Shown here: piece after piece, positions 5,801 through 20,406 of the stretch
Numbering within the stretch: position 1 is the stretch's first letter
Layout: each line of letters begins with the position of its first letter
Virus record (IMG/VR): IMGVR_UViG_3300042514_000078
Location: 1 to 22,315 of that record
Strand: one strand, 5' to 3'
Source: a virus
Length of the DNA stretch: 22,315 nt
The notes under the pieces: generated by a model
Database searches by the model: none
What the model was told of the DNA's origin: nothing
What the model saw: only the letters and a program-made list of their open reading frames with translations
Program-made: the position numbers and the translations under genes

Positions 5801-5961
5801 TGAACTGGTACATAAGTACTACAGCAATGGAAAATATTACAGTTAATGTAACTTACGTTAGCTATTATTCTGATGAAGATGATGATACCATTGAGATGAG
5901 TTTAGATGAATTAATAGAACAACCTAATACAACAATTACAGACTATGGCTTATCTTTATAG
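5800..5961 (+). CDS. Small acidic protein (53 aa), possibly truncated at its 3' end
   Basis: An ATG at 5800 overlaps the terL stop (TAATG) and opens a frame of 53 codons ending in TAG at 5959-5961. The product starts MNWYISTTAMENITVNVTYV, continues with an acidic patch (SDEDDDTIEMSLDELIEQ), and ends DYGLSL. It is the only confident gene in the window that stops with TAG. Its last 17 nt are shared with the start of the GIY-YIG endonuclease gene. Direct coupling to terL suggests a packaging-related accessory gene. The endonuclease insertion may have replaced its original 3' end. The function is unknown. Confidence 0.55.
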   Translation: MNWYISTTAMENITVNVTYVSYYSDEDDDTIEMSLDELIEQPNTTITDYGLSL

Positions 5962-6496: not shown

Positions 6497-9244
6497 ATGC
6501 AACTTTTTAACGCACTGCAATTAAAAAATGGAGCAAAAGTAGAATACAATCGTATGTCTACTTTAACTCAACCTATACAGTTTATTCCTCGTAATGAAAA
6601 AAATGATGACTGGGCTGCTCATAATCTTGACTGGCTAGAATGGCAGGGTATGAAGCAGTTGCGTAGAAATGCTAGAAGGCTTTCTAAGAACTATAAGCTT
6701 GCTAAAGGTATTATTGATAAAACAGATTATGTTGTTGAAGAGGACGTAGAATATGCAGAATTAATTGATGTTCTTACTAAAGAGGATCAGTCTGCATTAG
6801 AGTTAAAATTTTATCCTATTATCCCCAACGTAATTAACGTACTTGTATCTGAATTTGCTAAGAGAAATACTAGAGTTAGTTTTCGTGCTGTAGATGAGAT
6901 CTCATATAATGAGTTATTAGAGCAGAAAAGAGCTATGGTTGAGCAGAAGTTATTAGCTGATGCTGAGCGTAAGATGGTGATGAGTATGATTGAGCAGGGT
7001 GCTGATTTAGAAGATCCTGAAATCCAGAAAGCATTATCTCCAGAAAATCTTAAATCATTACCTGAGATTGAACAATACTTCAAGAAAGATTATAGATCTA
7101 TGCTAGAAGAATGGGCAGAACACCAAGCCCGTGTAGATGAGGAAAGATTTAAAATGGATGAACTTGAAGAGAGAGCTTTCCGTGATATGTTAATCACAGA
7201 TAGAGAATTCTGGCACTTCAAGATGAATGAGGATGATTATGAGATGGAGTTGTGGAATCCTTTAGTAACTTTCTATCATAAGTCTCCTGATGTAAGATAT
7301 ATCTCTCAGGGTAACTGGGTAGGTAAAATTGAGTTATATACTGTAGCAGATATTATTGACAAGTATGGTTACTTGATGACTGATGATCAGTTGCGTTCTA
7401 TGGAGGCTATTTATCCTACAAGAGCTGCCGGTTATCCTTTAGAAGGTTATCAAAATGATGGATCATACTATGATGCTACTAAATCACATGAGTGGAATAC
7501 TAACATGCCTTCATTACAGTACAGACAGTTTATGTCTACTTGGGAGCAGAATAGTACAGCCGGTAATGATATTGTTAGTTACATTATGTCTGAGTCTGAA
7601 GATTATGTAGATTATAAGAACACGGATATGTTACGTGTTGCTCATATCTATTGGAAGTCACAGCGTAAAGTAGGACACTTAACTAAGATTGATGAGAATG
7701 GTCAAGTAATTCAAGATGTTGTAGATGAGTCATATAAAATCACTCAAAAACCTTTGTATGATACTACACTATTTAAGAATAAGAATAAAGAAAATCTAAT
7801 TGCCGGTGAGCATATAGATTGGATTTGGATTAATGAAGTATGGGGTGGTGTAAAGATTGGACCTAACTATCCTGCATACTTTGGTATGAATAATAATGCT
7901 GGTGGTATTAATCCTATCTATATTGGTATTAATGAATCAAAACCCGGACGTGTACCTTTCCAATTTAAAGGAGATGCTACACTGTACGGCTGTAAATTAC
8001 CAGTAGAGGGATCTGTATTCTCAGATAGAAACACTAAGTCTACATCTCTTGTAGATTTGATGAAGCCTTATCAGATTGGTTATAACATTGTTAACAACCA
8101 GATTGCTGATATTCTTGTAGATGAATTAGGTACAGTGATCATGTTAGATCAGAATGCTTTACCTAGACACTCATTGGGAGAAGATTGGGGAAAGAACAAC
8201 TTGGCAAAAGCTTATGTTGCAATGAAGAACTTTCAGATGTTACCATTAGATACTTCTATTACTAACACTGAGAATGCTCTTAACTTCCAACATTATCAAG
8301 TATTAAACTTAGAACAGACACAGCGTTTGATGTCTAGAACTCAATTAGCTAACTATTTTAAGCAACAAGCTTTTGAGGTTATAGGGATCACACCACAGCG
8401 TTTGGGAGAGCAAGTGGAGCAAGCTACCGCTACAGGCGTTAGAATGGCTGTATCAAACTCCTATGCACAAACTGAGACATATTTTATTAATCACTGTGAT
8501 TACTTAATGCCTCGCGTGCATCAGATGCGTACAGACTTAGCTCAATACTATCAATCAACTAAGCCTTCTATCAGATTGCAGTACATTACTTCTACTGATG
8601 AAAAGGTTAATTTTGAGATGAATGGTACTGACTTATTGCTTAGAGATTTTAATATCTTCTGTACAACTAAGACAAACCATAGAGCTACGCTAGAACAATT
8701 GAAGCAATTAGCTCTTACAAATAATACTGCCGGTGCTTCTATCTATGATTTAGGTAATATCATGAAAGCTGAGTCTATCTCTGAAGTTACTCATATTCTT
8801 AAGTCTGCTGAAGAAAAGCAACAAGCTCAACGTCAGCAAGAAATGCAGCAACAACAAGCTATGCAAGAACAAGCTTTACAAGCTAAGAATCAAGAAACAA
8901 TGATGAAGATGCAGTTTGAATCTGAAGAGAATGAGAAGAACAGACAAAATGATATTGTAATTGCTGAAATTAGAGCTGCCGGTTATGGTGCTGCTGTAGA
9001 TGTTAACCAAAATCAGATGTCAGATTACCAGGATGCAATGAAAGATATCCGTAAGAGTGAAGAGTTTCAGCAACAGATGGATCTGAAAAAAGAATCTGCT
9101 GCTACACAGAAAGCTGTTAACATGGATAAGATGGCAATTGAGCGTGAAAAGCTAGCATCACAAAGGGAAATAGCTAATAAGCAATTAGAGATAGCTAGAA
9201 CTAATAAAAACAAATACGACAAGCCAGACAACAAGAAAAAGTAA
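6497..9244 (+). CDS. Portal protein
   Basis: The product has 915 residues, very large for a portal but in the range of podoviral Bacteroidota phages. It would form the dodecameric ring at one capsid vertex through which DNA passes. The N-terminal part (FIPRNEKNDDWAAHNLDWLEW, then RRLSKNYKLAKGIID) is the kind of start I associate with crAss-like portals. A middle domain contains YVDYKNTDMLRVAHIYWKS and the aromatic YPAYFG region. A helical stem-like segment follows (QRLMSRTQLANYFKQQAFEVIGITPQRLG). From about residue 771 to the end the protein is Gln/Lys/Glu-rich coiled coil (EEKQQAQRQQEMQQQQAM), fitting a long barrel inside the capsid. The start at 6497 follows an A-rich AAAAAAAGAAA leader; a second ATG at 6554 (MSTLTQP) is a possible alternative. 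Function follows from length, position after terL and these features. Confidence 0.85.
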   Translation: MQLFNALQLKNGAKVEYNRMSTLTQPIQFIPRNEKNDDWAAHNLDWLEWQGMKQLRRNARRLSKNYKLAKGIIDKTDYVVEEDVEYAELIDVLTKEDQSALELKFYPIIPNVINVLVSEFAKRNTRVSFRAVDEISYNELLEQKRAMVEQKLLADAERKMVMSMIEQGADLEDPEIQKALSPENLKSLPEIEQYFKKDYRSMLEEWAEHQARVDEERFKMDELEERAFRDMLITDREFWHFKMNEDDYEMELWNPLVTFYHKSPDVRYISQGNWVGKIELYTVADIIDKYGYLMTDDQLRSMEAIYPTRAAGYPLEGYQNDGSYYDATKSHEWNTNMPSLQYRQFMSTWEQNSTAGNDIVSYIMSESEDYVDYKNTDMLRVAHIYWKSQRKVGHLTKIDENGQVIQDVVDESYKITQKPLYDTTLFKNKNKENLIAGEHIDWIWINEVWGGVKIGPNYPAYFGMNNNAGGINPIYIGINESKPGRVPFQFKGDATLYGCKLPVEGSVFSDRNTKSTSLVDLMKPYQIGYNIVNNQIADILVDELGTVIMLDQNALPRHSLGEDWGKNNLAKAYVAMKNFQMLPLDTSITNTENALNFQHYQVLNLEQTQRLMSRTQLANYFKQQAFEVIGITPQRLGEQVEQATATGVRMAVSNSYAQTETYFINHCDYLMPRVHQMRTDLAQYYQSTKPSIRLQYITSTDEKVNFEMNGTDLLLRDFNIFCTTKTNHRATLEQLKQLALTNNTAGASIYDLGNIMKAESISEVTHILKSAEEKQQAQRQQEMQQQQAMQEQALQAKNQETMMKMQFESEENEKNRQNDIVIAEIRAAGYGAAVDVNQNQMSDYQDAMKDIRKSEEFQQQMDLKKESAATQKAVNMDKMAIEREKLASQREIANKQLEIARTNKNKYDKPDNKKK

Positions 9245-9351
9245 TAGCCTTATATTACAAAAAATACAGCTCTAAAAACAAATTTTTAAAGTTTATAAAA
9301 AGTAATATATTATATTCTTAATGTACACTACAAAATAAAATAACCAACTAT
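9245..9351 (+). promoter_or_regulatory. AT-rich gap before the scaffold gene, candidate late promoter
   Basis: The 107 nt between portal and the scaffold candidate form the longest gap in the head module and are very AT-rich. A perfect 10-nt palindrome (TAATATATTA) is at 9303-9312. TATATTATA at 9306-9314 is the same nonamer that forms the heart of the repeated element ahead of two fibre genes. No good TAnnTTTG element and no hairpin with a T tract are seen. The A-rich leader ACTACAAAATAAAATAACC precedes the next ATG closely. An internal promoter for scaffold and capsid genes is plausible, but the sequence is low in complexity. Confidence 0.35.
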
Positions 9352-10575
9352 ATGAGTGAAACAAAACCAAATGAGCAAACCACCGTACAACAAGTAGATA
9401 TCAACATAGATGATATCTTTGGTGGAGCTCCGGGAGCAGATAGTATTGTGCTGCCAACAGAGGAAGAAAAGAAACCTGGTTTTTTTTCAACCCCTAAAAC
9501 AGATTTAACGTTCTTAGACAAACAAGAGGAGGATGAAGATGGAAATCTAAAGCCTGCTACTCAAACTGCTAATGACTTATTAAATGAGTTAACCAACGAT
9601 GTTGATGACTTAATTAATGAGGAGGAGTCACCCAAAGGAGGTAGACCTAAGGTAGATAAGAGTGGTATGGTAGAAACCTTCTCTAAACTAATTGAAGAGG
9701 GTGTATTAATTGGATTTGAAGATGAGAAGCCAATGGATGAATACTCTCTTAAAGATTGGAAGGAGCTCTTGCAAGCTAACTTTGAAGAAAAGGAGCGGGC
9801 AATTAAAGAGCAAACTCCAAAAGAGTTCTTTGAAGCACTTCCTGAAGAACTTCAGTATGCTGCACAATATGTAGCAAACGGAGGTAATGACCTTAAAGGT
9901 CTATTCAGTGCATTAGCTCAAGTAGAAGAAGTACGTGGTTTAGATCCAACAGATGAGATGGATCAGGAACAGATTGTACGTTCATACTTGCGTGCCACTG
10001 GATTTGGCAATGATGAGGAAATTGATGAGGAGATTGTAACTTGGAAAGACTTAGGTAAGTTAGAACAACAAGCTAATAAGTTTAAACCAAAGTTGGACAG
10101 AATGCAAGAGTCTATTGTAGCCCAAAAGATTGCTGAACAAGAGCAATTAAAGGCACAACAAGAACAAGCGGCATCAGCATATATGGATAACGTATATGAA
10201 GCCCTTAAGCCTTCAGAATTGTCCGGTATTAAGTTGGATAAGAAAACCCAGTCTATGTTATATGCTGGTCTTGTACAACCTAATTACCCATCTATTTCAG
10301 GAAGAAATACAAACCTATTGGGACATTTGTTAGAGAAGCATCAATTTGTAGAACCTAACTACCCATTAGTAGCTGAAGCACTATGGTTATTGGCTGATCC
10401 AGATGGATACAAGTCAAAGATTATGGAGCAAGGCAAAAACAAAGTGGTTGAAAACACTGTAAGGCAACTTAAAACAGAGCAGTCTAGAAAGATCTCTAGC
10501 ACTGTAGCTGAAGAAAAAGAGGAGCCTAAACAGCGTAAGATTGCAAGACAGACAAACATTTTTAAAAGATTTTAA
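9352..10575 (+). CDS. Acidic head protein, probable capsid scaffold
   Basis: This 407-residue protein lies between portal and capsid genes, the usual place of the scaffold on which the prohead assembles. It is strongly acidic at the N-terminus (VDINIDDIFGG, DKQEEDEDGNLK, NDVDDLINEEE) and contains a basic GGRPKVDK tract near residues 96-103. The middle is predicted helical (EEKERAIKEQ, EQEQLKAQQEQAAS). The C-terminus is basic (KQRKIARQTNIFKRF), the charge pattern of scaffolds that bind capsid protein through a C-terminal basic helix. There is no protease triad that I can see. A run of eight T at 9480-9487 (codons for GFFS) could permit slippage, but the frame is intact. An internal head protein is the main alternative. 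Confidence 0.65.
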   Translation: MSETKPNEQTTVQQVDINIDDIFGGAPGADSIVLPTEEEKKPGFFSTPKTDLTFLDKQEEDEDGNLKPATQTANDLLNELTNDVDDLINEEESPKGGRPKVDKSGMVETFSKLIEEGVLIGFEDEKPMDEYSLKDWKELLQANFEEKERAIKEQTPKEFFEALPEELQYAAQYVANGGNDLKGLFSALAQVEEVRGLDPTDEMDQEQIVRSYLRATGFGNDEEIDEEIVTWKDLGKLEQQANKFKPKLDRMQESIVAQKIAEQEQLKAQQEQAASAYMDNVYEALKPSELSGIKLDKKTQSMLYAGLVQPNYPSISGRNTNLLGHLLEKHQFVEPNYPLVAEALWLLADPDGYKSKIMEQGKNKVVENTVRQLKTEQSRKISSTVAEEKEEPKQRKIARQTNIFKRF

Positions 10576-10607
10576 CAACACAAACAACACAAAACAAATA
10601 AATAATT

Positions 10608-12227
10608 ATGGCAACTCCAGTTTTAAACAATGGTATATTTCTGCGTGATACCAGCTACCAAGCTAGTTCTCACGTAGATTCATACCACCTCGTAAACATG
10701 CTGAAAAGCAGTGAACCTATGGATTTAGGTCCAGTAGACATTTGGGCTATGGCTCAAAAGGTTGAAATGCCTTTGTACCAGTTCTCTAGCTTTGGTGGCA
10801 AGAACATCATCAATGTAGATAACGCTCGTGGAGAGTACAAGTGGCAGGTTCCTGTTGCTCAAGATCTTCCTTACATTGTAACTGACATTGATTCTACTAA
10901 CACTACTAAGGGTATTGATGGTACTACTTTCCAAGTAAAATTAAACAAGCGTATTTTTGGACATGGTGACATCGTTACTTATGACAAGTACAATGGTTTG
11001 GAAATGTACATCACTGCTGATGACATTATCCCTACTGGTGATGGTTTCATCTACACTGTTCAATTGGTAAACAACAGCAATGGTGTTTCTTTGGACAATA
11101 AGTACTTGGCTTCTGGTACTAAAATGTTCCGTAAAGGTTCTGCTCGTGGTGAATACGGTGAGCGTTTCTCTGATATCGGACACTATGGTGCTGGTTTCCG
11201 TGAATTCTACAACTACGTAGGTGGTGCAGAAGCTCACGTACACTATTCAATTTCTAGCCGTGCTGACTTGATGTTGAAGGGTGGTTTGAACGCAGATGGT
11301 ACTATTCCTGTAACTGAAATCTGGCGTAACTTTGACAAGACTATGGATCCTTCTGTAACTAGCTTGGAGTCTATGGTACAAACTATGGGTAAAGATGCAG
11401 TTAAGCGTGCATTTGACAATGGTAACTTGACCCGTACTTTCTTGACTACAATGGAAGCAGCTCACTTGACTAAAGTAGCTAATGACATTGAGACCTACTT
11501 GATGTGGGGACAAGGTGGTAAGATTAAGCAAGATGGTCCAGATGATATCCGCTTATCAGTGGGTCTTTGGAAGCAGTTGGATAACAGCTTTAAGCGTGTA
11601 TACAACAAGTCTAGCTTCAACTTGGATTTGTTCAAGTCTGAAATCTATAACTTCTACTTGGGTAAGGTTGACTTCCAAGGTCCAGATCCTAAGCGTCAGT
11701 TGATTGTTCAAACTGGTATGGGTGGTATGAAGTTGGTTAACGAAGCAATTAAGAAAGAGGCTATCCAGTCTGGTATGATCATCAATGCTCAAGAAATTGG
11801 TGCTATTACTGGTAAGGGAATGGACTTGAACTTTGGATTTGCTTACACCAGCTATGTAATTCCTTTCTTGGCTAACGTTAAGTTTGTATTGAACCCTGCA
11901 TTTGACAACTTGCACACTAACGATATTGAAAACCCCTTGATTGATGGTTTCCCATTGTCTTCTTATAACTACATCATTTTTGATATCACTGATAACACTA
12001 ATGATAACATCTTCATGTTGAAATTGTCTTGGGACAATCAATTGAAGTGGTTCTACCAAAATGGTACTATGGATTACATGGGACGTACCCAAGGCTTCCA
12101 AAGCTCTGGTCAGTTCAATGGATACCGTGTATACATGAGCCAAACAATGCCTGCGATCTGGGTGAAGGACCCAACGAAAGTTCTCAAAATTGTGATGAGA
12201 AACCCAATCACCGGGGGATCGTTCTGA
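10608..12227 (+). CDS. Major capsid protein
   Basis: The product has 539 residues, with the order and size expected of an HK97-fold shell protein in this phage type. The start MATPVLNNGIFLRDTSYQAS and the early segment VNMLKSSEPMDLGPVDIWAM match capsid proteins of Bacteroidota phages as I know them; the HK97 fold itself is not visible from motifs. Glycine-, aspartate- and aromatic-rich segments follow (GGKIKQDGPDD, VIPFLANVKFVLNPAF). The leader is A-rich (ACAAATAAATAATT). Codon use is unlike the neighbours: leucine is nearly always TTG and arginine CGT, with AAC, TTC and GGT frequent, as in a highly expressed gene. That bias breaks down in the last ~28 codons (from about 12141), which use CTC, GTG, GCG, ACG, GGG and TCG. 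The LAGLIDADG endonuclease gene follows directly. Confidence 0.85.
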   Translation: MATPVLNNGIFLRDTSYQASSHVDSYHLVNMLKSSEPMDLGPVDIWAMAQKVEMPLYQFSSFGGKNIINVDNARGEYKWQVPVAQDLPYIVTDIDSTNTTKGIDGTTFQVKLNKRIFGHGDIVTYDKYNGLEMYITADDIIPTGDGFIYTVQLVNNSNGVSLDNKYLASGTKMFRKGSARGEYGERFSDIGHYGAGFREFYNYVGGAEAHVHYSISSRADLMLKGGLNADGTIPVTEIWRNFDKTMDPSVTSLESMVQTMGKDAVKRAFDNGNLTRTFLTTMEAAHLTKVANDIETYLMWGQGGKIKQDGPDDIRLSVGLWKQLDNSFKRVYNKSSFNLDLFKSEIYNFYLGKVDFQGPDPKRQLIVQTGMGGMKLVNEAIKKEAIQSGMIINAQEIGAITGKGMDLNFGFAYTSYVIPFLANVKFVLNPAFDNLHTNDIENPLIDGFPLSSYNYIIFDITDNTNDNIFMLKLSWDNQLKWFYQNGTMDYMGRTQGFQSSGQFNGYRVYMSQTMPAIWVKDPTKVLKIVMRNPITGGSF

Positions 12228-12277
12228 TGATTAAATTTTCTTGGATTTCTAATAACATTGTTGTATATTTGTACTGA
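12227..12277 (+). CDS. Possible 16-residue linker frame between capsid and endonuclease
   Basis: A tiny frame begins at the ATG at 12227-12229, sharing its A with the capsid stop (TGATG), and ends with TGA at 12275-12277, which shares its A with the ATG of the endonuclease gene (TGATG again). It would encode 16 residues (MIKFSWISNNIVVYLY). It may exist only to carry ribosomes from the capsid gene to the endonuclease gene, or it may be chance. A promoter-like sequence lies inside it. Coding status is unproven. Confidence 0.25.
   Translation: MIKFSWISNNIVVYLY
12241..12271 (+). promoter_or_regulatory. Bacteroidota-type promoter before the LAGLIDADG gene
   Basis: TTG at 12241-12243 is followed after 20 nt by TATATTTG at 12264-12271, matching the Bacteroidota/Flavobacteria pattern TTG-N19-ish-TAnnTTTG. 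Transcription would begin at about 12276-12278, that is, at or next to the ATG at 12277, giving a leaderless or nearly leaderless mRNA. If that is right the endonuclease can be expressed independently of the capsid operon. Chance matches are possible in such AT-rich sequence. Confidence 0.45.
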
Positions 12278-13227
12278 TGTACAAGACAACAAATACTAAA
12301 AAAGAAGAAATCCAAAGGTTGTATGATGAGGGGGTGATGCTTACTGAAATATGTAAGATCACTTCCTCCTCTCAACCAACTGTTAAAAAAGTTTTACTAT
12401 CTTGCGGTATAGACTATGATGCAGAAAAAAAGAAAGCAAGAGAAAAACAATTACAAGAGGTTATAGAATTATATAACCAGGGTAAGTCTCAAAATTATAT
12501 AGAGACTACACTTAAACTTACCCGGAAAACAATTAGAGAATTACTTAAAGAAGCTGGTGTAGAATACCGAGATAAATCTCAACAACAGCATATTAACAAT
12601 AACACTGAAATCAATCATCATGCATTTGATGAATTAACCCCTGAAGTTTTATACTGGATTGGTATGTTATTTACAGATGGGCATATAGAACAAAAAACAG
12701 AGGCATCTATAGATCTTACATTACATAATAATGATATAGATCATTTGTATAAATTTAAAGAGTTTTTAGGTAGTAGCCGGGATATTAAAAAAAATAAAGG
12801 TGATTGTTCTAGATTAAGAGTTAACTCTAAACAACTTAGAGATAGACTTGTAGAACTAGGTTTTACACATAATAAAAGTACAAGTATAGTACCTCATGAG
12901 TTATTAAAAGATTCCCGTGATTTTTGGCGTGGATGTATAGATGGTGATGGTGGTGTTTATTGGAGAAAAGATAATACTGGTCATATTACATTATGTGGTA
13001 CATTAGAAACAATTTTTGAATTTGCAATATTTTGTAATAAATATACTGGTGTAAAAGATAAGTATCCTACAAGATCTAATGGTAAAAATTTATATCAGAT
13101 ATCTTATTATGGAAAAGATGCTAGAAAGATAGCTACTTACTTATACAAAGACTCTACTGTATACCTACAACGTAAATATGATACTTACCGGGACTTTTTA
13201 AATTTTCCAGAAGAAGAACTAGTTTGA
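12277..13227 (+). CDS. LAGLIDADG homing endonuclease, free-standing, with N-terminal HTH region
   Basis: This 316-residue protein has two LAGLIDADG helices. LYWIGMLFTDGHI (125-137) ends in the catalytic aspartate 134, and FWRGCIDGDGGV (216-227) in Asp222/Asp224. They form the two halves of a monomeric enzyme that would cut a long asymmetric site. Residues 8-45 (EEIQRLYDEGVMLTEICK ... SQPTVKKVLL) and 60-95 (EVIELYNQGKSQNYIETT ... TRKTIRELLKEAG) are helix-turn-helix repeats of the resolvase/homing-associated type and would help recognise DNA. The gene follows the capsid gene by a TGATG linker and precedes the first fibre gene by 44 nt. Its AT-rich codon use (ATA, TTA, AGA) differs sharply from the capsid gene, fitting acquisition by homing. 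A shorter start at the internal ATG (GVMLTE, 12337) is possible if the promoter makes a leaderless message. Confidence 0.88.
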   Translation: MYKTTNTKKEEIQRLYDEGVMLTEICKITSSSQPTVKKVLLSCGIDYDAEKKKAREKQLQEVIELYNQGKSQNYIETTLKLTRKTIRELLKEAGVEYRDKSQQQHINNNTEINHHAFDELTPEVLYWIGMLFTDGHIEQKTEASIDLTLHNNDIDHLYKFKEFLGSSRDIKKNKGDCSRLRVNSKQLRDRLVELGFTHNKSTSIVPHELLKDSRDFWRGCIDGDGGVYWRKDNTGHITLCGTLETIFEFAIFCNKYTGVKDKYPTRSNGKNLYQISYYGKDARKIATYLYKDSTVYLQRKYDTYRDFLNFPEEELV

Positions 13228-13235
13228 TAATAAGA

Positions 13236-13261
13236 ATTATATTAAGTATATTATAATAGAA
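13236..13261 (+). promoter_or_regulatory. Repeated promoter-like element, copy 1
   Basis: A 26-nt sequence lies 10 nt ahead of the ATG of the first fibre gene. It matches the element at 15515-15540 in 24 of 26 positions, with the only differences at 13244-13245 (AA here, TT there). The last 16 nt, GTATATTATAATAGAA, are identical in both. The core contains the palindrome ATTATAAT and is close to a T4-late-type TATAAATA box. I read it as a candidate phage late promoter; a ribosome-loading role is also possible. Confidence 0.5.
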
Positions 13262-13271
13262 GAGTACTATC

Positions 13272-15149
13272 ATGCCTTTAGAAAGATTCATACCCAAATC
13301 ACCTGATATGTTTATTAGAAACAGTCAGGATTTTGAAGTTGCCAAATTTGGGCATCTTAATGCTATTGTTGAATATATCAATAATAATTCTGGTGGTTTA
13401 AAATTATCCGGTAATGGTTTTATATCTGTTACAGTAAAAACTGTACTAGATCCTGCTGGAAATACTACACCATTAAGAATGTCTAGTTCTTCTATTACCA
13501 ATTATGGTGGAGGATCTATTGATACTAATACAGCATTTGGTTCTAGTGCATTAGGTAGAAACTCAACAGGGGCTAATAATACAGCTTTTGGTCTATCTGC
13601 TATTTATAACAATACAACCGGAAGTAATAATACTGGTATTGGCTCCTTATCATTAGCATTTAACAATGGTTCTGATAACGTAGCAGTTGGTTATCGTGCT
13701 CTAACTACTAATACTAGCGGAGGTACAAACGTGGCTGTGGGTGTGGATGCTTTGAAAAGCAATACGACAGGAAGTAACAATACCGCAATAGGTTGGCGTT
13801 CATTATACCTCAACACCTCCTCTTACAACACCGCAATAGGGTTTCAAGCCGCAGAAAATAATTCAACAGGTGATATTACAGCAGTAGGTTATAGAGCAGG
13901 ATTAAAAAGCACAACAGCAATAGAAGTCACTTTTGTAGGAAATCAAAGTGGTTTTGAAAATACAACAGGTGCATACAATACATCTTTAGGTAGTACTGCA
14001 TTATACAACAACACGACAGGCTCACAAAATACGGCTTTAGGTCGTAGTGCGTTGTTTCAAAATGCAACAGGTAGCAACAATACCGCTGTAGGCATGAATG
14101 CTTTATTGTATGTTACAGGTTCAGATAACACAGCAGTAGGTACATCATCACAGCAAACTGCATCAACAGGGAGTGGGAATACATCGTTAGGCTTTCAATC
14201 ATTACTTTCCAACACCGCTTCCAATAACACCGCAGTAGGCTATCAAGCGTCAAATCAAAATACTACGGGAGTAAATAATACTGCATTAGGTTTAGGTGCA
14301 TTAAAAGCAAATACCACGGGTTCTTCAAATGTTGCGATTGGTGTTAATGCTGCTAATTTTGGTGGTGGTGGTGCTATTGGTAACGAAAATGTTGTGGTAG
14401 GGATACAAGCAATGCAATATGGGGGAAGTGGTAATACCGCATTAGGGTCAAATGCTTCTCGATTTAATGAGACGGGTACTCTTAATGTAGCAGTAGGGGG
14501 GTATTCATTAAATAAAAGTAGTAGTGGTTCAAATATTGTAAGCGTTGGCTATGAATCACTATTTAACAACACTGCCTCCAATAATACAGCGGTAGGTTAT
14601 CAAGCAGGGTTTAGTAATACAAGTGGAACGGGTATAACTGCGATAGGGTATCAAGCGTTGACATTGAGTACGGGTAGTGATAATACTGCAGTAGGTTTTC
14701 AATCGTTGGATGCAAATACTACGGGTGCATCAAGTACGGCAGTTGGTAGTTTTGCTTTAACTTCAAATACTACGGGTTCGGGAAATAACGCTTTTGGAGT
14801 AGGAGCATTAAATAATAACACAACGGGAACAAATAATACTGCAATGGGTGCAGAATCTTTACAATTCAATACTTCTGCAAGTAACAATACAGCAGTTGGA
14901 GTTCAATCTTTAAGAACAAATACAACAGGAGCAGGCAATACAGCAGTTGGTGCTAATATTGATTCGGGTAATTTTTCGGGTTCTTTACTTTTGGGAAAAG
15001 ATGCAATTGCGACAGCAAATAATCAAGCCGTATTTGGTAGTGCACTAACAAATGCAGGTACAGTAGACACAGCAGTAGTAGCTCCTACTAAGCGTTGGAA
15101 AGTAAAGATTAACGGAGTAGATTATTATATTGCTTTAGAGCCAGCTTAA
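13272..15149 (+). CDS. Anchored solenoid fibre with NTAVG-type repeats
   Basis: This 625-residue protein is a modular virion appendage. Residues 1-40 form the shared anchor domain (ERFIPKSPD, then AKFGHLNAIVEYINNN). A short linker (about 48-76) has the pattern VTVKTVLDPAGNTTPL, also seen in the gene at 18095. Residues 86-570 hold about 29 tandem repeats of 16-17 residues of the type NTAVGxxALxxNTTGSN, expected to stack as a beta-solenoid like the YadA head or Hep_Hag repeats. The last 55 residues (from SLLLGKDAI) form a non-repetitive cap ending KRWKVKINGVDYYIAL. It would trimerise into a rigid, sugar- or surface-binding rod. Codon use changes near 13740: ACG codons are absent before about 13758 and then occur about a dozen times. 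That suggests that the solenoid was acquired separately from the anchor. Confidence 0.85.
   Translation: MPLERFIPKSPDMFIRNSQDFEVAKFGHLNAIVEYINNNSGGLKLSGNGFISVTVKTVLDPAGNTTPLRMSSSSITNYGGGSIDTNTAFGSSALGRNSTGANNTAFGLSAIYNNTTGSNNTGIGSLSLAFNNGSDNVAVGYRALTTNTSGGTNVAVGVDALKSNTTGSNNTAIGWRSLYLNTSSYNTAIGFQAAENNSTGDITAVGYRAGLKSTTAIEVTFVGNQSGFENTTGAYNTSLGSTALYNNTTGSQNTALGRSALFQNATGSNNTAVGMNALLYVTGSDNTAVGTSSQQTASTGSGNTSLGFQSLLSNTASNNTAVGYQASNQNTTGVNNTALGLGALKANTTGSSNVAIGVNAANFGGGGAIGNENVVVGIQAMQYGGSGNTALGSNASRFNETGTLNVAVGGYSLNKSSSGSNIVSVGYESLFNNTASNNTAVGYQAGFSNTSGTGITAIGYQALTLSTGSDNTAVGFQSLDANTTGASSTAVGSFALTSNTTGSGNNAFGVGALNNNTTGTNNTAMGAESLQFNTSASNNTAVGVQSLRTNTTGAGNTAVGANIDSGNFSGSLLLGKDAIATANNQAVFGSALTNAGTVDTAVVAPTKRWKVKINGVDYYIALEPA
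13527..14981 (+). repeat. Coding tandem repeat, ~29 units of 48-51 nt
   Basis: Protein residues 86-570 of the fibre gene repeat with a period of 16-17 residues: N-[TV]-[AS]-[VIL]-G-x-x-[AS]-[LA]-x-x-N-T-[TS]-G-x-[NG]. At DNA level the units are diverged, but some are close: the unit pairs at about 14210-14270 and 14570-14630 both encode NTASNNTAVGYQA. The repeats maintain the reading frame without stops. Confidence 0.85.
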
Positions 15150-15185
15150 TAAATAAAACATAAAAAATAAAAAATAAATACAATT

Positions 15186-15512
15186 ATGACAACTTACAAT
15201 TGGACAATTACTAATCTCTACACAAAAACTGTAGAAGGATTACAAGATTACGTAGTAACTGCTATGTACAATGTTACCGGAGTAGATGGAGAATTCTCTT
15301 CTACTATTAACGGAAGTCAAATGTTTACTGTAAAAGAAGGACAAGACTTTATCCCATATTCTGAATTAACTAACGAGACTGTTGTTGAGTGGATTAAAGA
15401 AGAGTTGGGTGAGAATGGTATTCTTTCTATTACTGCTTGTATTGATGGACAGATTGAGTCTCAAAAGAACCCTCCTGTAGTTCCACAAAATACCCCTTTG
15501 CCTTGGGCTTAA
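15186..15512 (+). CDS. Conserved phage protein of unknown function (NPP..PLPW type)
   Basis: The 108-residue product begins with alternating beta-like residues (TYNWTITNLYTKTVEGLQDY), includes GSQMFTVKEGQDFIPYSELT and a helical VVEWIKEELGENG segment, and ends with NPPVVPQNTPLPWA. I recognise this as a family widely seen in tailed phages next to tail-fibre genes, where proteins share the 'TYxWxI ... DGQI..Q.NPP ... PLPW' frame. Their role is unknown as far as I know. Here it sits between the solenoid fibre and the next anchored gene, with an A-rich leader (AAAAATAAATACAATT). A virion-surface or fibre-associated role is inferred from context. No membrane or signal sequence is present. Confidence 0.75.
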   Translation: MTTYNWTITNLYTKTVEGLQDYVVTAMYNVTGVDGEFSSTINGSQMFTVKEGQDFIPYSELTNETVVEWIKEELGENGILSITACIDGQIESQKNPPVVPQNTPLPWA

Positions 15513-15514
15513 GG

Positions 15515-15540
15515 ATTATATTTTGTATATTATAATAGAA
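15515..15540 (+). promoter_or_regulatory. Repeated promoter-like element, copy 2
   Basis: This is the second copy of the 26-nt element, 16 nt before the ATG of the gene at 15557. Its last 16 nt are identical to copy 1. The spacer to the start is the A-rich AGAAAAAATAAATAAA, a typical Bacteroidota-phage leader. Its presence in front of two anchor-domain genes, and nowhere else in full length, suggests they are co-regulated. Confidence 0.5.
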
Positions 15541-15556
15541 AGAAAAAATAAATAAA

Positions 15557-16135
15557 ATGGCAATAGGAAAATTTGTTGTGTTAAACCCTGATAGATGGGT
15601 TACTGGTTTAGGTAAAACGGCTGCTGATAGTACACAGGCACGTTTTGGTCACTTAAACCGTATTGTTGATTATATCAATGAGCACGTAGAAGAAAAAATG
15701 TTACGTACAGTTAGCTTAAATGCTGCTGCTACTGCTGAATTATATAGAGAGACTGATCCGGTATTGTTATCAATTCCTGCAACTTCTTTCTTAGTTGGAG
15801 CAACTAACTACTTAGTACCTGTTAGCAATAACTGTGCATGGTCTGTTACTGTAGATTTTACTGCGGTATGTAGCACTGCTGGTGGTAGTGTATCTTTAGG
15901 AGATTCTTTCTTAGGTAAGTACACTGTATTGTTCAAGCGTGTTAATGGTACTGCTAGTATTGTAGGCATTAACGGTGCAGTAACTGTAGCTGATGCAAGT
16001 ATGGAAACTTCTCAGGTATTATTTACTGCTGGTGCATCTCAAGATTTCCGTATTCAGTTTCAAGCTCCTAGCACTGCTAGTGGAACAGGCTTTAAATTGA
16101 GAGCGGATGTATATTTCACTGAATTAACTTTCTAA
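15557..16135 (+). CDS. Anchored beta-domain appendage protein (192 aa)
   Basis: Residues 1-45 are a diverged copy of the shared anchor (KFVVLNPDRW ... ARFGHLNRIVDYINEH), with a five-residue-longer loop than the other copies. After a linker (about 46-94), residues 95-192 form a beta-rich C-terminal domain: WSVTVDFTAVC, GDSFLGKYTVLFKRVNGTAS and QDFRIQFQAPS. The same C-terminal domain closes the next two genes, where it follows YadA-like repeats instead of the anchor. I infer a short virion-surface spike or a base on which the two following proteins mount. The gene uses codons typical of this phage's structural genes and has an A-rich leader. There is no enzymatic motif. Confidence 0.75.
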   Translation: MAIGKFVVLNPDRWVTGLGKTAADSTQARFGHLNRIVDYINEHVEEKMLRTVSLNAAATAELYRETDPVLLSIPATSFLVGATNYLVPVSNNCAWSVTVDFTAVCSTAGGSVSLGDSFLGKYTVLFKRVNGTASIVGINGAVTVADASMETSQVLFTAGASQDFRIQFQAPSTASGTGFKLRADVYFTELTF

Positions 16136-16139
16136 TATC

Positions 16140-17081
16140 ATGTCAAATTTTTCATTACAAATTGGTGATGGTAGTGTAAAGAATGGTGCTGCCAGAGGTG
16201 CTGACTCAATTGATTTACAATTAACCCGTACAACTCCTTATCAAGTTGCATCTGGAAGAGGTTCTATGATTGTAGGTGGTGCTAATAACACTTCTAATGG
16301 ATTATATGCTGCCGTAATGGGTGGTTATGGTAATACAAGTCTTGGTACTTATGCTGTTACTGGTGGTGCCGGTAACATTGCTAGTGGTGAATCATCAATA
16401 GCTTTAGGTGCTGGTAACGAAGCAACTGCTCAAGGTTCTGCAGCAATTGGATTAGAAAATAATGCAAATGCTCAAGCATCTATTGCAATTGGTAATGGTA
16501 ATACAACTGCTGCTATCAGTAGTGCCATTATTAACTCTGTAGGTTCTGCAACATTTAGCACAGCTCCTTATTCTACTATTATTGGTGGTGCTGGTGGATT
16601 ATCATATTTGCCTGGTCAATTAATTACTAATCCCCGTTCTCAATACGGTGGTGGTGGTACTTTTCAAGTAAGTGAGTTATTAGTATTCCGTGAAGTATCT
16701 CAATCAGCTGGTGCATATAGTGCAATTCAATACACATTGGATGGTTTACCTCCAGCAGTAACTAATGAATTAATTATTAATTCAGCTAACAAAGTATGGC
16801 AGGTTGTATCTGAGTGGATGTTGATCAACCAGACTACTAGCCAAGTAGTTGTAGGTAAGGATTTAGTAGTTGTACATAAAGTAGGCGGTGTTGTAAGATT
16901 AGTTACTTCAACCAACATTAGTAAAGCTGGAGATTTCTCTATGACTTCTGTTTGGAACGCAGCATACAATACAGCAAATGATATGTCTGTAACTTTAATA
17001 CCTACAGGTGGTTCTTCACTTGGTACTACTATCTTCCGTGGATCTGCAAAACTTACTATTACAGAATTAAAATCTAACTAA
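16140..17081 (+). CDS. YadA-head-like appendage protein with shared beta-domain (313 aa)
   Basis: Residues ~37-130 hold 14-residue repeats of the YadA head type (VASGRGSMIVGGANNTSNG, GESSIALGAGNEATAQG, SAAIGLENNANAQASIAIG), which form a left-handed trimeric beta-roll. A middle region (about 131-217) is variable. Residues ~218-313 are the C-terminal beta-domain shared with the flanking genes: WQVVSEWMLIN, GKDLVVVHKVGGV, TNISKAGDFS. There is no FGHxN anchor. The gene starts 4 nt after its predecessor and ends one base before the next ATG, so the three are translated together. It probably forms a short trimeric fibre. Receptor binding is an inference. Confidence 0.75.
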   Translation: MSNFSLQIGDGSVKNGAARGADSIDLQLTRTTPYQVASGRGSMIVGGANNTSNGLYAAVMGGYGNTSLGTYAVTGGAGNIASGESSIALGAGNEATAQGSAAIGLENNANAQASIAIGNGNTTAAISSAIINSVGSATFSTAPYSTIIGGAGGLSYLPGQLITNPRSQYGGGGTFQVSELLVFREVSQSAGAYSAIQYTLDGLPPAVTNELIINSANKVWQVVSEWMLINQTTSQVVVGKDLVVVHKVGGVVRLVTSTNISKAGDFSMTSVWNAAYNTANDMSVTLIPTGGSSLGTTIFRGSAKLTITELKSN

Positions 17082-17082
17082 T

Positions 17083-18084
17083 ATGGGAAATTATGTACTT
17101 ACTCCTAATGTAGGAAATGCTCGCGGTAATTATGCAGTAGATTTTAACTTTGTTAAAACAGCTGCAGATATGGTTGCTAGTGGTTATGCTTCTATCTTAA
17201 TTGGTGGTGGTGATAATAAAGCTGGTGCTGGTTACGCCTCAGTAATGGGTGGATTTAATAATGTTGCTAACGGAGAAGCAAGTACAGTAGTTGGAGCATA
17301 TAATGAATGTGATGGTGCAAATTCATTTGTATTTGGTTACTCAAATAAATCAAGTGCTTTTACATCATTTCTAGGTGGTAGTTATAATCAGTTAAAAGGT
17401 AGTTATCATTTTGCATTTGGTCAGTATGGTACTATGCTTAATGATTTAAATAGACATAGTACTATTCTTAACTGTCAAACATACTATATTGGTACAGATT
17501 CTAGTGATGGTGATGCTCAGGCTCCTACTACTGCAATCTTTTCTGGTGGATTTGCTTGGCCCGTACATGAAGGTGAGCAAGTAAGAAATTCACGTTTCTA
17601 TGAAGCAATTGGATTATTAAAAGCTGTTCAACACTCTGTTATCACTATGTTCTATCAAGGTATTGCAACAAACACTGTACCTTGTAAATTACAGACAAAT
17701 GGTGACATGGCTAATATTCCTGATTTAGGAAAAGATTTAACTATGTTACATGATGTTAATCCTGTTACTGGTGCACCTGTTCCTATGGCTTGGTCATTAA
17801 ATGTAAACTGGGTTGCTATTGATTTAGTAAACAATAGAGTAATTACCGGTGAAGATACAGTAATGGTTAACCGTGTTAATAGCGCTGGTGGAGTTATCTT
17901 TAGTGTAGAAACAGATCCTATTGCAAAAGCTGGTGATTCTTCTTTAAATTCTTCAGTAGTATTGTATGCAACTTCAACATTGTATCCTAACTCAATTACT
18001 ATTAGGTTCAGACCTAGTTATTCTTCTAATTTCCGTGTAGCAGCTAGAGTTCAGATGTTACAAGATATCTCAAACCCTGTATAA
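17083..18084 (+). CDS. YadA-head-like appendage protein, paralogue of the upstream gene (333 aa)
   Basis: This is a tandem paralogue of the gene at 16140. The opening NARGNYAVDFNFVKTAADMV corresponds to its ARGADSIDLQLTRTTPYQVA. The repeats run as VASGYASILIGGGDNKAG, GYASVMGGFNNVANGEAS and GANSFVFGYSNKSSAF, and give way to a unique centre (about 125-235) containing TTAIFSGGFAWPVHEG. The shared C-terminal beta-domain is at ~238-333 (NVNWVAIDLVNN, GEDTVMVNRVNSAGG, IAKAGDSSLNSS). Only one base separates it from the previous gene. The divergent middle between conserved ends suggests that the variable part contacts something outside. No enzyme motif is seen. Confidence 0.75.
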   Translation: MGNYVLTPNVGNARGNYAVDFNFVKTAADMVASGYASILIGGGDNKAGAGYASVMGGFNNVANGEASTVVGAYNECDGANSFVFGYSNKSSAFTSFLGGSYNQLKGSYHFAFGQYGTMLNDLNRHSTILNCQTYYIGTDSSDGDAQAPTTAIFSGGFAWPVHEGEQVRNSRFYEAIGLLKAVQHSVITMFYQGIATNTVPCKLQTNGDMANIPDLGKDLTMLHDVNPVTGAPVPMAWSLNVNWVAIDLVNNRVITGEDTVMVNRVNSAGGVIFSVETDPIAKAGDSSLNSSVVLYATSTLYPNSITIRFRPSYSSNFRVAARVQMLQDISNPV

Positions 18085-18094
18085 TATAAATAAA

Positions 18095-18655
18095 ATGATA
18101 AACAAATTTGTTCCCCTATCTCCTGATCCATATTTAAACACTGACGCTGATATGTCATTGGCCAAATTTGGTCACATTAATACTATTGTTGATTATCTAG
18201 CAGATAGTTTAAAACTAGCAACAACTGGTCCGTTAACTGCAACTCTTACACCAATAATGGATGCATATGGTAATTTAACTAGTCTTAAATTATCTATTAA
18301 TTCAGCTCAGTTCACAAGTCCATTACGCATTACTACAGATGATATTAGTGCAATGTATTTGGATATTGAAGATGGTAGTGCAACTAACCGTTTTAATATC
18401 ACTAGAGTTCCTTCATCTCAGCAAGTAAACTTAAACTTTGCCTCTAATCCGGTTGGTAGTACTACTATTGTAGGTGGTATTAGAACCTATGTAGATGGTA
18501 TTAATTTAAGTGATGTTGTAACATTTAGAGAGGATGGTCTAGTAAATATTTTAAAATTGGGTATTACCAGTTTACCAAATAGTTCTGCCGGATTACCTTC
18601 AGGTTCTTTATGGTATGATCCTGCTGCAGGAAATGCTATAAAGTATGTACCATAA
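18095..18655 (+). CDS. Short anchored stalk protein (186 aa)
   Basis: Residues 1-36 are the anchor (NKFVPLSPDPYL ... AKFGHINTIVDYL). Next comes a segment LTATLTPIMDAYGNLTSLKL, similar to the linker in the solenoid fibre at 13272. Residues ~109-150 contain NPVGSTTIVGGIRTYVDG, a module also present in the next gene. The C-terminus GLPSGSLWYDPAAGNAIKYV is a tip type common in Bacteroidota phage fibres. It is a compact version of the fibre architecture and links module types found in its neighbours. The leader TATAAATAAA places an A-rich site three bases from the ATG. It is presumably a virion-surface appendage; the target is unknown. Confidence 0.75.
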   Translation: MINKFVPLSPDPYLNTDADMSLAKFGHINTIVDYLADSLKLATTGPLTATLTPIMDAYGNLTSLKLSINSAQFTSPLRITTDDISAMYLDIEDGSATNRFNITRVPSSQQVNLNFASNPVGSTTIVGGIRTYVDGINLSDVVTFREDGLVNILKLGITSLPNSSAGLPSGSLWYDPAAGNAIKYVP

Positions 18656-18672
18656 ATTTAAATTAAATAATC

Positions 18673-19926
18673 ATGCCTTTAGAAAGATTCATCCCCTTAT
18701 CACCAGACCCTAATATCACTACATCTAGTGATATGGGGATGGCTCAGTTTGGTCATTTAAATACTATTGTAGATTATTTAAATGGTACATATGCTTTAAC
18801 TGATATAAAGATTGCCGGTATTAATAATACACCGGGTTATATTGATTTTTCAGCTAATCCTTCTGGATCTACTACTGCTGTGGGTGCAATTCGCACGTAT
18901 CAAGATGGAACAAATCTGTTACCTACGTTAACATTTATTGAAAGTGGTGATGTTTACCAAAGTAAATATAGCGGTGGAATTAATAACATATTTATACAAG
19001 ACAACGCAGGTGTAAATATGCCCAATGGGACAGGTGTTTATCAAGGTGACTACGTTGGTCGCAGAAATGGTGCAACAGCAACATTGTTTAGACAAGCATT
19101 AACGTATAATGGAGATGGAACTACACGTAGAGGTAGATATTCTATGAGTGTTGCGGAAAGTAGTGGTTTTGGTTCTTATCAATTTGTTTTAACACAATAT
19201 GGAAACTTAAAAGTAAATATATCGGGTCATGGTGCAGGTAGTTATATTGACGATGCTATTAGCCCAACCACTGCATATAATATACACGCAGGTAATATAA
19301 TAAATACAATAGGTAGTACATTACCATTGCTTTCTTTAGACGTTAATGGATTGACAAAACACGTTTTCCAAACCAATGGTAACGTATCATTTAACAACAC
19401 TGCGGATATGGCGGCTATTGTTGGCATCAAAGGCAGTGGATCTACCTCAGCTACTATTTCTTTATTAGTGCAGAATAGTGCAGGTAATACTGCGTTTCAA
19501 GTAAAAGATGATTTGAACGCTAATTTTCAAGGTAGAATACAAATTGAATACGATAAAATTTCATTTTTGGGCAGTCCATCAAATACATACATAGAACAAT
19601 CATTAGGTTTAGGTATTGGTTTTTATTCTGCTGCTGTATCTAATCAGATAATGATTAATGCACAGCCTAAAATAATCGTAAAAGATACAGGTGCATCACG
19701 GGCGAGTACATTGATTGTAGGTCATAACGTACCTACTACGGATGCTGCTGATGTAAGTGCATTGTTAGAAGTTAGGTCTGATGCTACTTATCTAAAAGGC
19801 TTCCTACCACCAAGAATGACAACAGCACAAAAGAACTTAATTGCAAGTCCAGCTATTGGTCTTCAAATATTTGATACCGATCTTAATAGACCTTGTTTTT
19901 ACAATGGTGCATGGGTAACATTATAA
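18673..19926 (+). CDS. Anchored composite fibre (417 aa)
   Basis: Residues 1-37 form the anchor (ERFIPLSPDPNI ... AQFGHLNTIVDYL). Residues ~55-95 carry the NPSGSTTAVGAIRTYQDG module shared with the preceding gene. The middle (about 96-250) is a distinct fibre body with QGDYVGRRNGATATLF. A KGSGSTSATISLLVQNS module starts at residue 253, and the end (from about 376) is GFLPPRMTTAQKNL ... NRPCFYNGAWVTL, a fibre tip common in Bacteroidota and their phages. Codon usage becomes less phage-like after about 18960, where AGC, GCG and ACG appear, so the distal part may have been exchanged. The protein is probably a trimeric receptor-binding fibre. No endosialidase-type peptidase S74 domain is seen. Confidence 0.78.
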   Translation: MPLERFIPLSPDPNITTSSDMGMAQFGHLNTIVDYLNGTYALTDIKIAGINNTPGYIDFSANPSGSTTAVGAIRTYQDGTNLLPTLTFIESGDVYQSKYSGGINNIFIQDNAGVNMPNGTGVYQGDYVGRRNGATATLFRQALTYNGDGTTRRGRYSMSVAESSGFGSYQFVLTQYGNLKVNISGHGAGSYIDDAISPTTAYNIHAGNIINTIGSTLPLLSLDVNGLTKHVFQTNGNVSFNNTADMAAIVGIKGSGSTSATISLLVQNSAGNTAFQVKDDLNANFQGRIQIEYDKISFLGSPSNTYIEQSLGLGIGFYSAAVSNQIMINAQPKIIVKDTGASRASTLIVGHNVPTTDAADVSALLEVRSDATYLKGFLPPRMTTAQKNLIASPAIGLQIFDTDLNRPCFYNGAWVTL

Positions 19927-19961
19927 TCAATTAAAACAAAAAAAATAAATATATTTACAAC

Positions 19962-20336
19962 ATGAAAGCTCTAAAAATTAATGCCCCCGTAAACTTAAAT
20001 ACCGGTGCAACTTTAGCCTCTGGTTCTTTAGTAGTTATTACTGAAGGATTAGCTCAAGTATTTACTACCAAAGAAGGTAGCATGAATGCTCAAATTGTTA
20101 ACGCTGTATACACTAGTGTAGAAGCATTTGAATCTGGTAAAGCCGCTGTATCAGGTATTGCTGATTTTAACCCAGCAATGTATGGTCTTTCTTTATCTGT
20201 AGAAGATTACAGCACTAAGACTGCTGAAGCTCTTTTAGTAGATACAGTAGAAGCCCAGTTGGAAGCAATTTACTCTGGTAGTGTAGAAGAAGTGGATGTT
20301 ACTCCTTATGTAGCTCCAGTTGAATCTGCTGAGTAA
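19962..20336 (+). CDS. Small structural-type protein of unknown function (124 aa)
   Basis: The product opens with KALKINAPVNLNTGATLASG, has a beta-rich N-terminal half (SLVVITEGLAQVFTTKE), and a helical stretch (VDTVEAQLEAIYSG) before an acidic tail ending in VESAE. I recall similar small proteins next to fibre genes of Bacteroidota phages, but I know no function. It lies between two anchored fibre genes with an A-rich leader (AAAAAAAATAAATATATTT). The codon bias matches the phage's structural genes, so good expression and a virion role are likely. After the stop codon the same frame stays open for 20 more codons, to TAA at 20397-20399. Confidence 0.65.
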   Translation: MKALKINAPVNLNTGATLASGSLVVITEGLAQVFTTKEGSMNAQIVNAVYTSVEAFESGKAAVSGIADFNPAMYGLSLSVEDYSTKTAEALLVDTVEAQLEAIYSGSVEEVDVTPYVAPVESAE

Positions 20337-20406
20337 TTTTTTACTAACCCGGTGGTACGCCTGCAAATAGAGCTCGTAACTCTTACCGGGTACAAATAAC
20401 AAGATA
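20337..20406 (+). other. GC-richer spacer with stem-loop before the last fibre gene
   Basis: This spacer has about 47% GC in 20341-20400, well above its surroundings. It holds a perfect 7-bp inverted repeat, ACCCGGT at 20347-20353 and ACCGGGT at 20385-20391, separated by 31 nt; a smaller AGAG/CTCT stem can form inside. No T tract follows the 3' arm, so it is not a standard terminator. It may be an mRNA processing or stability element, or a regulated leader. It coincides with a 20-codon in-frame extension of the preceding gene. Confidence 0.4.

What the first reader, a model, noticed from the sequence alone, without database searches (positions are those of the whole stretch)
13715..14980. Codon-usage break inside the solenoid gene
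In-frame ACG is absent from the first ~160 codons (to about 13758) and then occurs about a dozen times up to about 14830, together with GCG, TCG, ACC and GCC. The anchor and first few repeats follow the phage's usual codon choice; the rest does not. The distal repeats look imported or exchanged, with the join inside the repeat tract.
Basis: seen in the sequence. Interest (0 to 1): 0.5.

Follow-up and report, generated by a model that had tools for sequence, protein, structure and literature searches.

The report
Mosaic repeat fibre in crAss-like phage
A host-recognition fibre gene of a crAss-like bacterial virus is a patchwork: its beginning is shared with near-identical viruses, while its later repeats are shared with other fibre genes, so these viruses appear to re-equip themselves by exchanging blocks of repeats.

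Summary
The codon observation is largely correct. In-frame ACG occurs 12 times, from 13764 to 14823. ACG alone gives no significant break (p=0.21), but all NCG codons together do (0/45 before 13717, 24/161 after; scan p=0.003). ACC and GCC do not respect the break. The better evidence is comparative. Distal coils 14568-15125 instead match (79%, E=5e-134) a second solenoid fibre gene, with another anchor, in a second near-identical phage (L295), and a third fibre with a third anchor (L297). For 13713-14561 no close relative was found. Four other close relatives (90.6-98.5% backbone identity) carry other tracts, or a non-solenoid fibre, in the same slot. So the gene is a mosaic: anchor plus about five coils, orphan tract, shared coil block, cap. 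The import reading is supported, but the matching partners are other phage fibre genes, not a bacterial genome, and codons are a weak marker. Tail-fibre mosaicism is known; swapping coil blocks inside one solenoid, and between two fibre loci, is the less usual part.

The parts
13272..15149 (+). Solenoid tail-fibre gene, 625 aa; about 28 coils of 15-17 aa between an N-terminal anchor and a C-terminal cap
   Evidence: PHROG matches incl. tail spike protein phrog_4636 E=2.3e-60; beta-solenoid model residues 83-592, mean pLDDT 71.4
13272..13397 (+). Anchor (aa 1-42), motif F..SPD...A.FGH.N.IV.Y, shared by five fibre genes in the window
   Evidence: alignment A2; 80% nt identity to 20407-20525
13272..13712 (+). 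Segment 1: anchor plus first about five coils; NCG 0/44; 96.2% identical to L085 over 13272-13720
13689..13748 (+). Hinge coil GYRAL..NTSG..NVAVGVD in which segment 1 ends; one copy per gene in 13 of 192 solenoid genes, over six anchor types
13710..13715 (+). Junction: identity to L085 breaks here (ML 13712), in the N-T-S-G turn (residues 147-150) between coils
13713..14561 (+). Segment 2: orphan tract; best relative 119 bp at 76%; NCG 10/91
14562..14935 (+). Segment 3: coil block shared with the second solenoid gene of a near-identical phage (L295) and with a fibre of a third anchor type (L297); NCG 11/48
   Evidence: (E=5e-134 and 2e-120)
14568..14627 (+). Joint coil NTASNNTAVGYQAGFSNTSG: number of other solenoid genes with >=78% DNA match jumps from 3 to 23 at 14562
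14936..15149 (+). Segment 4: C-terminal cap (KRWKVKINGVDYYIALEPA), 78-82% identical to caps in L086, L092, L098; NCG 3/23
15186..15512 (+). 108-aa gene that follows this fibre slot (phrog_7802, function unknown); 95-98% aa identity in L259, L260, L261
12277..13227 (+). LAGLIDADG-type homing endonuclease gene between MCP and fibre; its last 90 bp are shared with a different endonuclease allele in L085
10608..12227 (+). Major capsid protein (Crass_capsid), upstream edge of the variable fibre region
   Evidence: L005 is 94.9% identical up to 12228 and unrelated beyond except short anchor matches

Best explanation
The gene is a recombinant tail fibre of a crAss-like phage. Shown: near-identical phages share the anchor, the first coils and the genes around, but not the middle and distal coils; one distal coil block of the window sits in a different fibre gene, with a different anchor, in a near-identical phage. 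Inferred: during co-infection, blocks of coils are exchanged in register by homologous recombination between solenoid fibre genes, at recurrent coils that many such genes carry (GYRALxxNTSGxxNVAVGVD at the proximal end, NTASNNTAVGYQAGxSNTSG more distally), including between the two solenoid loci of this phage group. The register of the solenoid is kept, so the chimera folds; the anchor still docks on the virion and the cap still closes the fibre, while the exposed surface, and probably host range, changes. The codon break is a by-product: the exchanged coils came from NCG-richer fibre genes.
For: L085: 98.5% over 7198-12233, 96.7% over 13137-13720, non-alignable tract, then 94.9% over 14919-18193; break 13712, interval 13710-13715. 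A second contig, 3300043436_000306 (L252/L262/L254), is 93-96% identical on both sides (9991-13418 and 15033-20646) with a different tract between. L259 and L260 (98.5% and 98.3% over the MCP region) carry a non-solenoid fibre and a 509-aa solenoid in the same slot before the same 108-aa gene. Segment 3 matches L295 over 558 bp at 79% (0.83-0.87 in 75-nt steps over 14625-14849) and L297 over 497 bp at 79%; ACG at 14721, 14736, 14772 and GCG at 14655 are shared with L295. NCG in second-locus genes 29/289, 41/386, 42/358, 33/327 (10-12%) vs other first-locus genes 16/299, 5/163, 13/213, 9/148, 18/230 (3-8%). The same pattern holds at the second locus: L093, L089, L295 and L165 share pairwise the first 433-872 nt, then differ. 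29 of 45 solenoid gene pairs with a >=88% match over >=90 bp match over only part of the gene. The break falls between strands in the model.
Against: No donor at >90% identity was found: segment 3 is 79% while the backbones differ by 4-5%, so the exchange was not directly between these two phages, and direction is inferred from codons only. Segment 2 has no relative, so its import is inferred from its absence in relatives. Identity to L085 already declines before the break (0.99 to 0.91 after 13600), so it may be several events or selection. The hinge coil is the best-matching DNA window in only 19 of 136 ordered pairs between anchor types (top 5% in 58), so homology at that site is moderate. 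An exact 27-mer over the junction is in no other viral contig. Receptor binding is not tested.
Confidence: 0.82

Rival explanations
1. Assembly chimera: the assembler joined two different fibre genes at a shared stretch in the repeats, so the junction does not exist in any phage.
For: The window is a 22,315-base virus record; an exact 27-mer over the junction occurs in no other viral contig; the window and L085 share a run of about 25 identical bases just before the break, enough for a k-mer join.
Against: The flank returns to the same species on the right (15150-18193), so two misjoins would be needed; five other contigs of this group (L085, L252/L262, L260, L259, L086) each show their own tract or fibre in the same slot; coils within the gene are only 51-76% alike.
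Confidence: 0.08
2. No import: the repeats are the phage's own and the codon change is chance or follows repeat composition.
For: ACG alone is not significant (p=0.21); other fibre genes in the window also have about 10% NCG; 23 of 145 other solenoid genes show p<=0.05.
Against: NCG break p=0.003 under synonymous permutation; an ACG preference before Gly is not general (585/4354 before Gly vs 2141/16272 elsewhere in 149 solenoid genes); the alignment break with L085 does not depend on codons.
Confidence: 0.04
3. Turnover in place: duplication, deletion and unequal crossing-over of the gene's own coils, without any outside source.
For: Coil number differs widely (460 to 902 aa in first-locus genes); coil blocks occur at shifted positions in other pairs, e.g. 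L135/L137.
Against: With 1.5-5% backbone divergence, in-place turnover would leave out-of-register coils at >90% identity; the best 51-nt match of any step from 13731 on to L085 is 0.80, and of any step to the gene's own other coils 0.76. Segment 3 has its match in another gene.
Confidence: 0.08
4. Import from a bacterial (Bacteroidota) genome.
For: Bacterial genomes hold related solenoids; 77 loci were found with residues 161-569.
Against: No genome-collection locus reached the level of L295/L297; the strongest genome-collection hits (L165, L208) are small contigs of one Sphingomonadaceae MAG, and L165 is 91% identical over its first 455 nt to the second solenoid gene of L085's phage, so it is probably phage DNA in a bin. 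Plasmids: no match.
Confidence: 0.05

Closest known systems
Tail-fibre gene mosaicism by recombination at conserved motifs (T-even distal fibre; Tetart 1998, seen only as reference 50 in PMC7468147, details recalled)
   Same: Conserved virion-proximal part, exchangeable distal part, joins at recurring sequence motifs.
   Different: Here the joins lie inside one continuous solenoid, in coil register, the cap is conserved again, and a block occurs in two different fibre loci of near-identical phages.
Metaviromic islands in marine phages (PMC3909814, passages read)
   Same: Near-identical phages with hypervariable tail-fibre regions; one fibre carries a YadA domain that under-recruits.
   Different: That work reports read recruitment; in the passages read no junction was placed in a repeat tract, and the word 'recombination' has 0 occurrences in the text.
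Flexible gene modules in cryoconite phages (PMC7468147, passages read)
   Same: Near-identical core genomes, including a Bacteroidetes phage, with interchangeable homologous modules and variable homing endonucleases.
   Different: In the passages read, whole modules or genes are described, not coil blocks inside a solenoid.
crAss001 virion (PMC10172136, passages read)
   Same: Crassvirus head and tail fibres dock by short N-terminal anchors (gp21 1-38, gp29 1-58, gp22 1-26).
   Different: The anchor profile of this window finds no crAss001 chain in the PDB (single hit unrelated, E=0.07).

Membership tests
Crassvirales (crAss-like phage) | Crassvirus major capsid protein | tested here: met
   PF23898 Crass_capsid, E=5.6e-32, 111 bits vs cut-off 27
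Crassvirales (crAss-like phage) | Portal and large terminase present as in a tailed phage | tested here: met
   phrog_6547 portal E=6e-92, phrog_6681 terminase large subunit E=8e-64; order-specific assignment of these two was not tested
YadA-type head (trimeric autotransporter left-handed beta-roll) | Pfam YadA_head repeat model | tested here: not met
   0 Pfam families at E<=0.01 for the gene; only the neighbour 16140-17081 has a sub-threshold match (19.2 bits vs 25)
YadA-type head (trimeric autotransporter left-handed beta-roll) | Same fold in structure comparison | tested here: inconclusive
   Model is a beta-solenoid; VIA-align best Z 18.5 (rmsd 2.9, 276 aligned, Vag8), then tailspikes and lyases at about 11-17; Foldseek no match at E<=0.001; handedness and trimer not tested
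Recombinant (mosaic) tail fibre | Abrupt change of closest relative inside one gene | tested here: met
   L085 up to 13712, L295/L297 from 14568, caps of L086/L092/L098 from about 14917-14954
Recombinant (mosaic) tail fibre | Change of receptor specificity | not testable with these tools
   needs binding or host-range assays
Diversity-generating retroelement target | Near-identical template repeat in the genome | tested here: inconclusive
   In the 22-kb record the gene's DNA matches only itself and three anchor stretches; the rest of the genome is not held; no reverse-transcriptase search was made
LAGLIDADG homing endonuclease (12277-13227) | Domain match above curated cut-off | tested here: met
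   PF14528 23.8 bits vs 22.5; phrog_4645 endonuclease E=3.7e-47

The most novel reading that the evidence does not exclude
These crAss-like phages keep a combinatorial fibre system: two solenoid loci with locus-specific anchors and caps, between which, and with other phages, coil blocks are shuffled in register at a small set of recurrent joint coils, so that a fixed docking end and cap present an ever-changing shaft. The nearby homing endonucleases may promote the exchange.
Probability: 0.35. Interest if true: 0.65.

Novelty: new variant of a known kind. Interest (0 to 1): 0.45.

Why it matters
It turns a codon oddity into a mapped recombination joint, placed to within six bases, in a fibre gene of an uncultured crAss-like phage. 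It suggests that beta-solenoid fibres are exchanged in coil blocks rather than only as whole genes, which gives a natural rule for where such fibres can be joined and still fold. It also warns that similarity in these fibres tells little about the phage that carries them, and that host prediction from backbone identity may fail.

Tried and rejected
ACG alone as a marker: not significant. A general ACG-before-Gly habit of the repeats: rejected over 149 genes. Plasmids: no match. Phages in GenBank: two records, DNA matches over only 13% and 8% of 13600-14900. Own-contig paralogue as a recent donor for L085: L085 and L093 tracts of the same contig are at most 80% alike, over short stretches. The distinctive piece 14331-14561 as query: 8 loci, best-segment aa identity 37-47%; their DNA was in the pool searched and gave no close match for it. 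The hinge coil as the most conserved DNA site: only partly. PDB by sequence: none for the gene; the anchor profile gives one unrelated hit at E=0.07. Foldseek: no match at E<=0.001. In one search the control regular expression for the GYQAG coil had a wrong spacing and gave 0; it was corrected. The first line (4, 29) was counted out of frame and is not used. Solenoid-gene sets differ between calls: 149 (145 of them had enough NCG codons to test), 150 with the window, 192 after the last scan. The number of coils (about 28) was counted by eye from the translation. The list showed only hits ending before 14990, which hid the L295 match; searches show it.

Homing endonuclease as the driver: considered, neither supported nor excluded. 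The window and L252 share the endonuclease but differ in the tract; L085 has another endonuclease; L259 and L260 have none there.

Full report
What the gene is. The finding lies in an ORF at 13272-15149 (625 aa) of a crAss-like phage: the gene at 10608-12227 is a crassvirus major capsid protein (PF23898, E=5.6e-32), with portal and terminase upstream. The record is a 22,315-base virus contig. The protein has an N-terminal anchor that it shares with four other genes in the window (alignment A2), about 28 coils of 15-17 residues, and a C-terminal cap. AlphaFold gives a beta-solenoid for residues 83-592 (mean pLDDT 71.4, pTM 0.63; residues 1-82 below 50). PHROGs list virion structural and tail spike families. 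Pfam gives nothing for it. The likeness to YadA heads is recalled from the repeat motif; it was tested by Pfam and not met, and by fold comparison it is inconclusive.

The observation. ACG occurs in frame 12 times, from 13764 to 14823, never before. GCG and TCG are also all distal; ACC, GCC and TCC are not. Permuting synonymous codons within the gene gives p=0.003 for one break in NCG codons and p=0.21 for ACG alone. The break lies between 13713 and 14031. NCG is 0/45 before 13717 and 24/161 after, against 62/1312 in the rest of the window. By segment: 0/44, 10/91, 11/48, 3/23. Two other fibre genes of the window have about 10% NCG. So the break is real but modest, and it is the distal part that deviates, not the proximal part.

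The junction. Of 123 relatives of the protein found among viral contigs (80 kept), L085 is decisive. It is 98.5% identical to the window over 7198-12233, 96.7% over 13137-13720 and 94.9% over 14919-18193. Between these the repeat tracts cannot be aligned: about 1.43 kb in the window and 2.26 kb in L085 from the break to the stop codon. The maximum-likelihood break is 13712, support 13710-13715. The break falls in the turn N147-T-S-G150, between two coils in the model, and the coil register is kept. Identity already drops from 0.99 to 0.91 after 13600, so more than one event is likely. On the right, identity climbs slowly over 14910-15149 and is at 0.97 or more from about 15320, so that border is blurred.

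Other close relatives. Contig 3300043436_000306 (L252, L254, L262) is 94.1% identical over 9991-13418, including the endonuclease gene, and 93-96% over 15033-20646, with a different fibre gene and a different solenoid between. L260 (98.3% over 9260-12228) has a 509-aa solenoid, and L259 (98.5% over 9088-12228) a 455-aa fibre without such repeats, both before the same 108-aa gene. L086 (90.6% over 6703-12228) shares the anchor (13270-13388) and the cap (14954 onward) but only short patches of the middle. L005 is 94.9% identical up to the end of the capsid gene and then carries another fibre module, with only short anchor matches.

Where the distal coils belong. In the last scan (530 pattern stretches, 500 relatives, 80 kept) the best protein match to 14541-14849 is in L295, on contig 3300043436_000306 itself, but in a second solenoid gene further downstream with the anchor MSSSITQL. 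At DNA level window 14568-15125 matches L295 over 558 bp at 79%, E=5e-134, reaching 0.83-0.87 in the steps from 14625 to 14849; a third gene with the anchor MGTSLFNTTP (L297) matches 497 bp at 79%. The next best hit has less than half their score (178 vs 474 and 428 bits). Four NCG codons are shared in place with L295. Second-locus solenoid genes have 10-12% NCG; first-locus ones, apart from the window's 11.7%, have 3-8%. That fits the codon signal in segment 3. From about 14917-14954 on, the closest relatives are the caps of L086, L092 and L098 (78-82%). Segment 2 (13713-14561) has no match better than 119 bp at 76%.

Generality. The second locus behaves in the same way: four genes (L093, L089, L295, L165) share pairwise their first 433-872 nt and then differ, while the flanking DNA of L093, L089 and L295 is 85-90% alike where compared. 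Of 45 solenoid gene pairs with a match of at least 88% over 90 bp, 29 match over only part of the gene, some at shifted positions. The hinge coil GYRALxxNTSGxxNVAVGVD lies at the end of the shared part in several pairs and occurs once per gene in 13 of 192 genes, over six anchor types. The number of other genes with a 78% DNA match jumps from 3 to 23 at 14562, where segment 3 begins. I read these two coils as joints used in exchange. Against this, the hinge coil is the top DNA match in only 19 of 136 ordered gene pairs.

How it most likely works. Shown: the mosaic and its borders. Inferred: homologous recombination in register between fibre genes in co-infected cells, selection on the exposed shaft, and a change of host range. 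The anchor presumably docks as crAss001 fibres do (PMC10172136, passages read), but no sequence relative of the anchor was found in the PDB. The direction of transfer is inferred from codons only.

What is known. Variable tail fibres between near-identical phages are well described: PMC3909814 (passages read) even reports a fibre with a YadA domain that under-recruits, and PMC7468147 (passages read) describes interchangeable modules with near-identical cores, among them a Bacteroidetes phage. Recombination between conserved motifs in T-even fibres is a 1998 paper that I saw only as a reference. My searches (open-licence papers only, listings and abstract starts) listed no paper on coil-block exchange in crAss-like solenoid fibres; that is not proof of absence. 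I rate this a new variant of a known kind.

Noticed in passing
window 5945-6487: A NUMOD3-motif homing endonuclease gene (PF07460, 40.3 bits) sits between terminase and portal; L005 lacks it, with a clean gap between window 5942 and 6497, and L008 and L009 lack it too.
   Followed up: partly
window 12277-13227 and L085:5162-5956: The LAGLIDADG endonuclease between MCP and fibre exists in two alleles that share only the last about 90 bp (13137-13227) plus a 78% patch; so it is itself mosaic, next to the fibre joint.
   Followed up: partly
L165, L204, L208 (RFPL01000035, 31, 29): Contigs filed in a Sphingomonadaceae MAG carry solenoid fibre genes; L165 is 91% identical over the first 455 nt to the second solenoid gene of L085's phage, so phage contigs seem to be binned into a bacterial genome.
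   Followed up: partly
L092, L263, L264, L265 vs window 15186-15512: The 108-aa gene follows solenoid fibres with quite different anchors, also in a phage whose MCP is only 25% identical (L264's record); it travels with the fibre and could be an assembly factor.
   Followed up: no
L135/L137/L159: Solenoid genes with a 99% identical 506-nt start and 93-98% identical blocks at shifted positions, a clear case of coil-block shuffling in other phages.
   Followed up: no
L006:2384-3167: About 780 extra bases between window positions 9209 and 9233 (portal end / next gene) in this relative.
   Followed up: no
window 14337-14382: A run of 15 codons all ending in T, island p=0.002 within the gene; may be another small patch in the orphan segment.
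   Followed up: no
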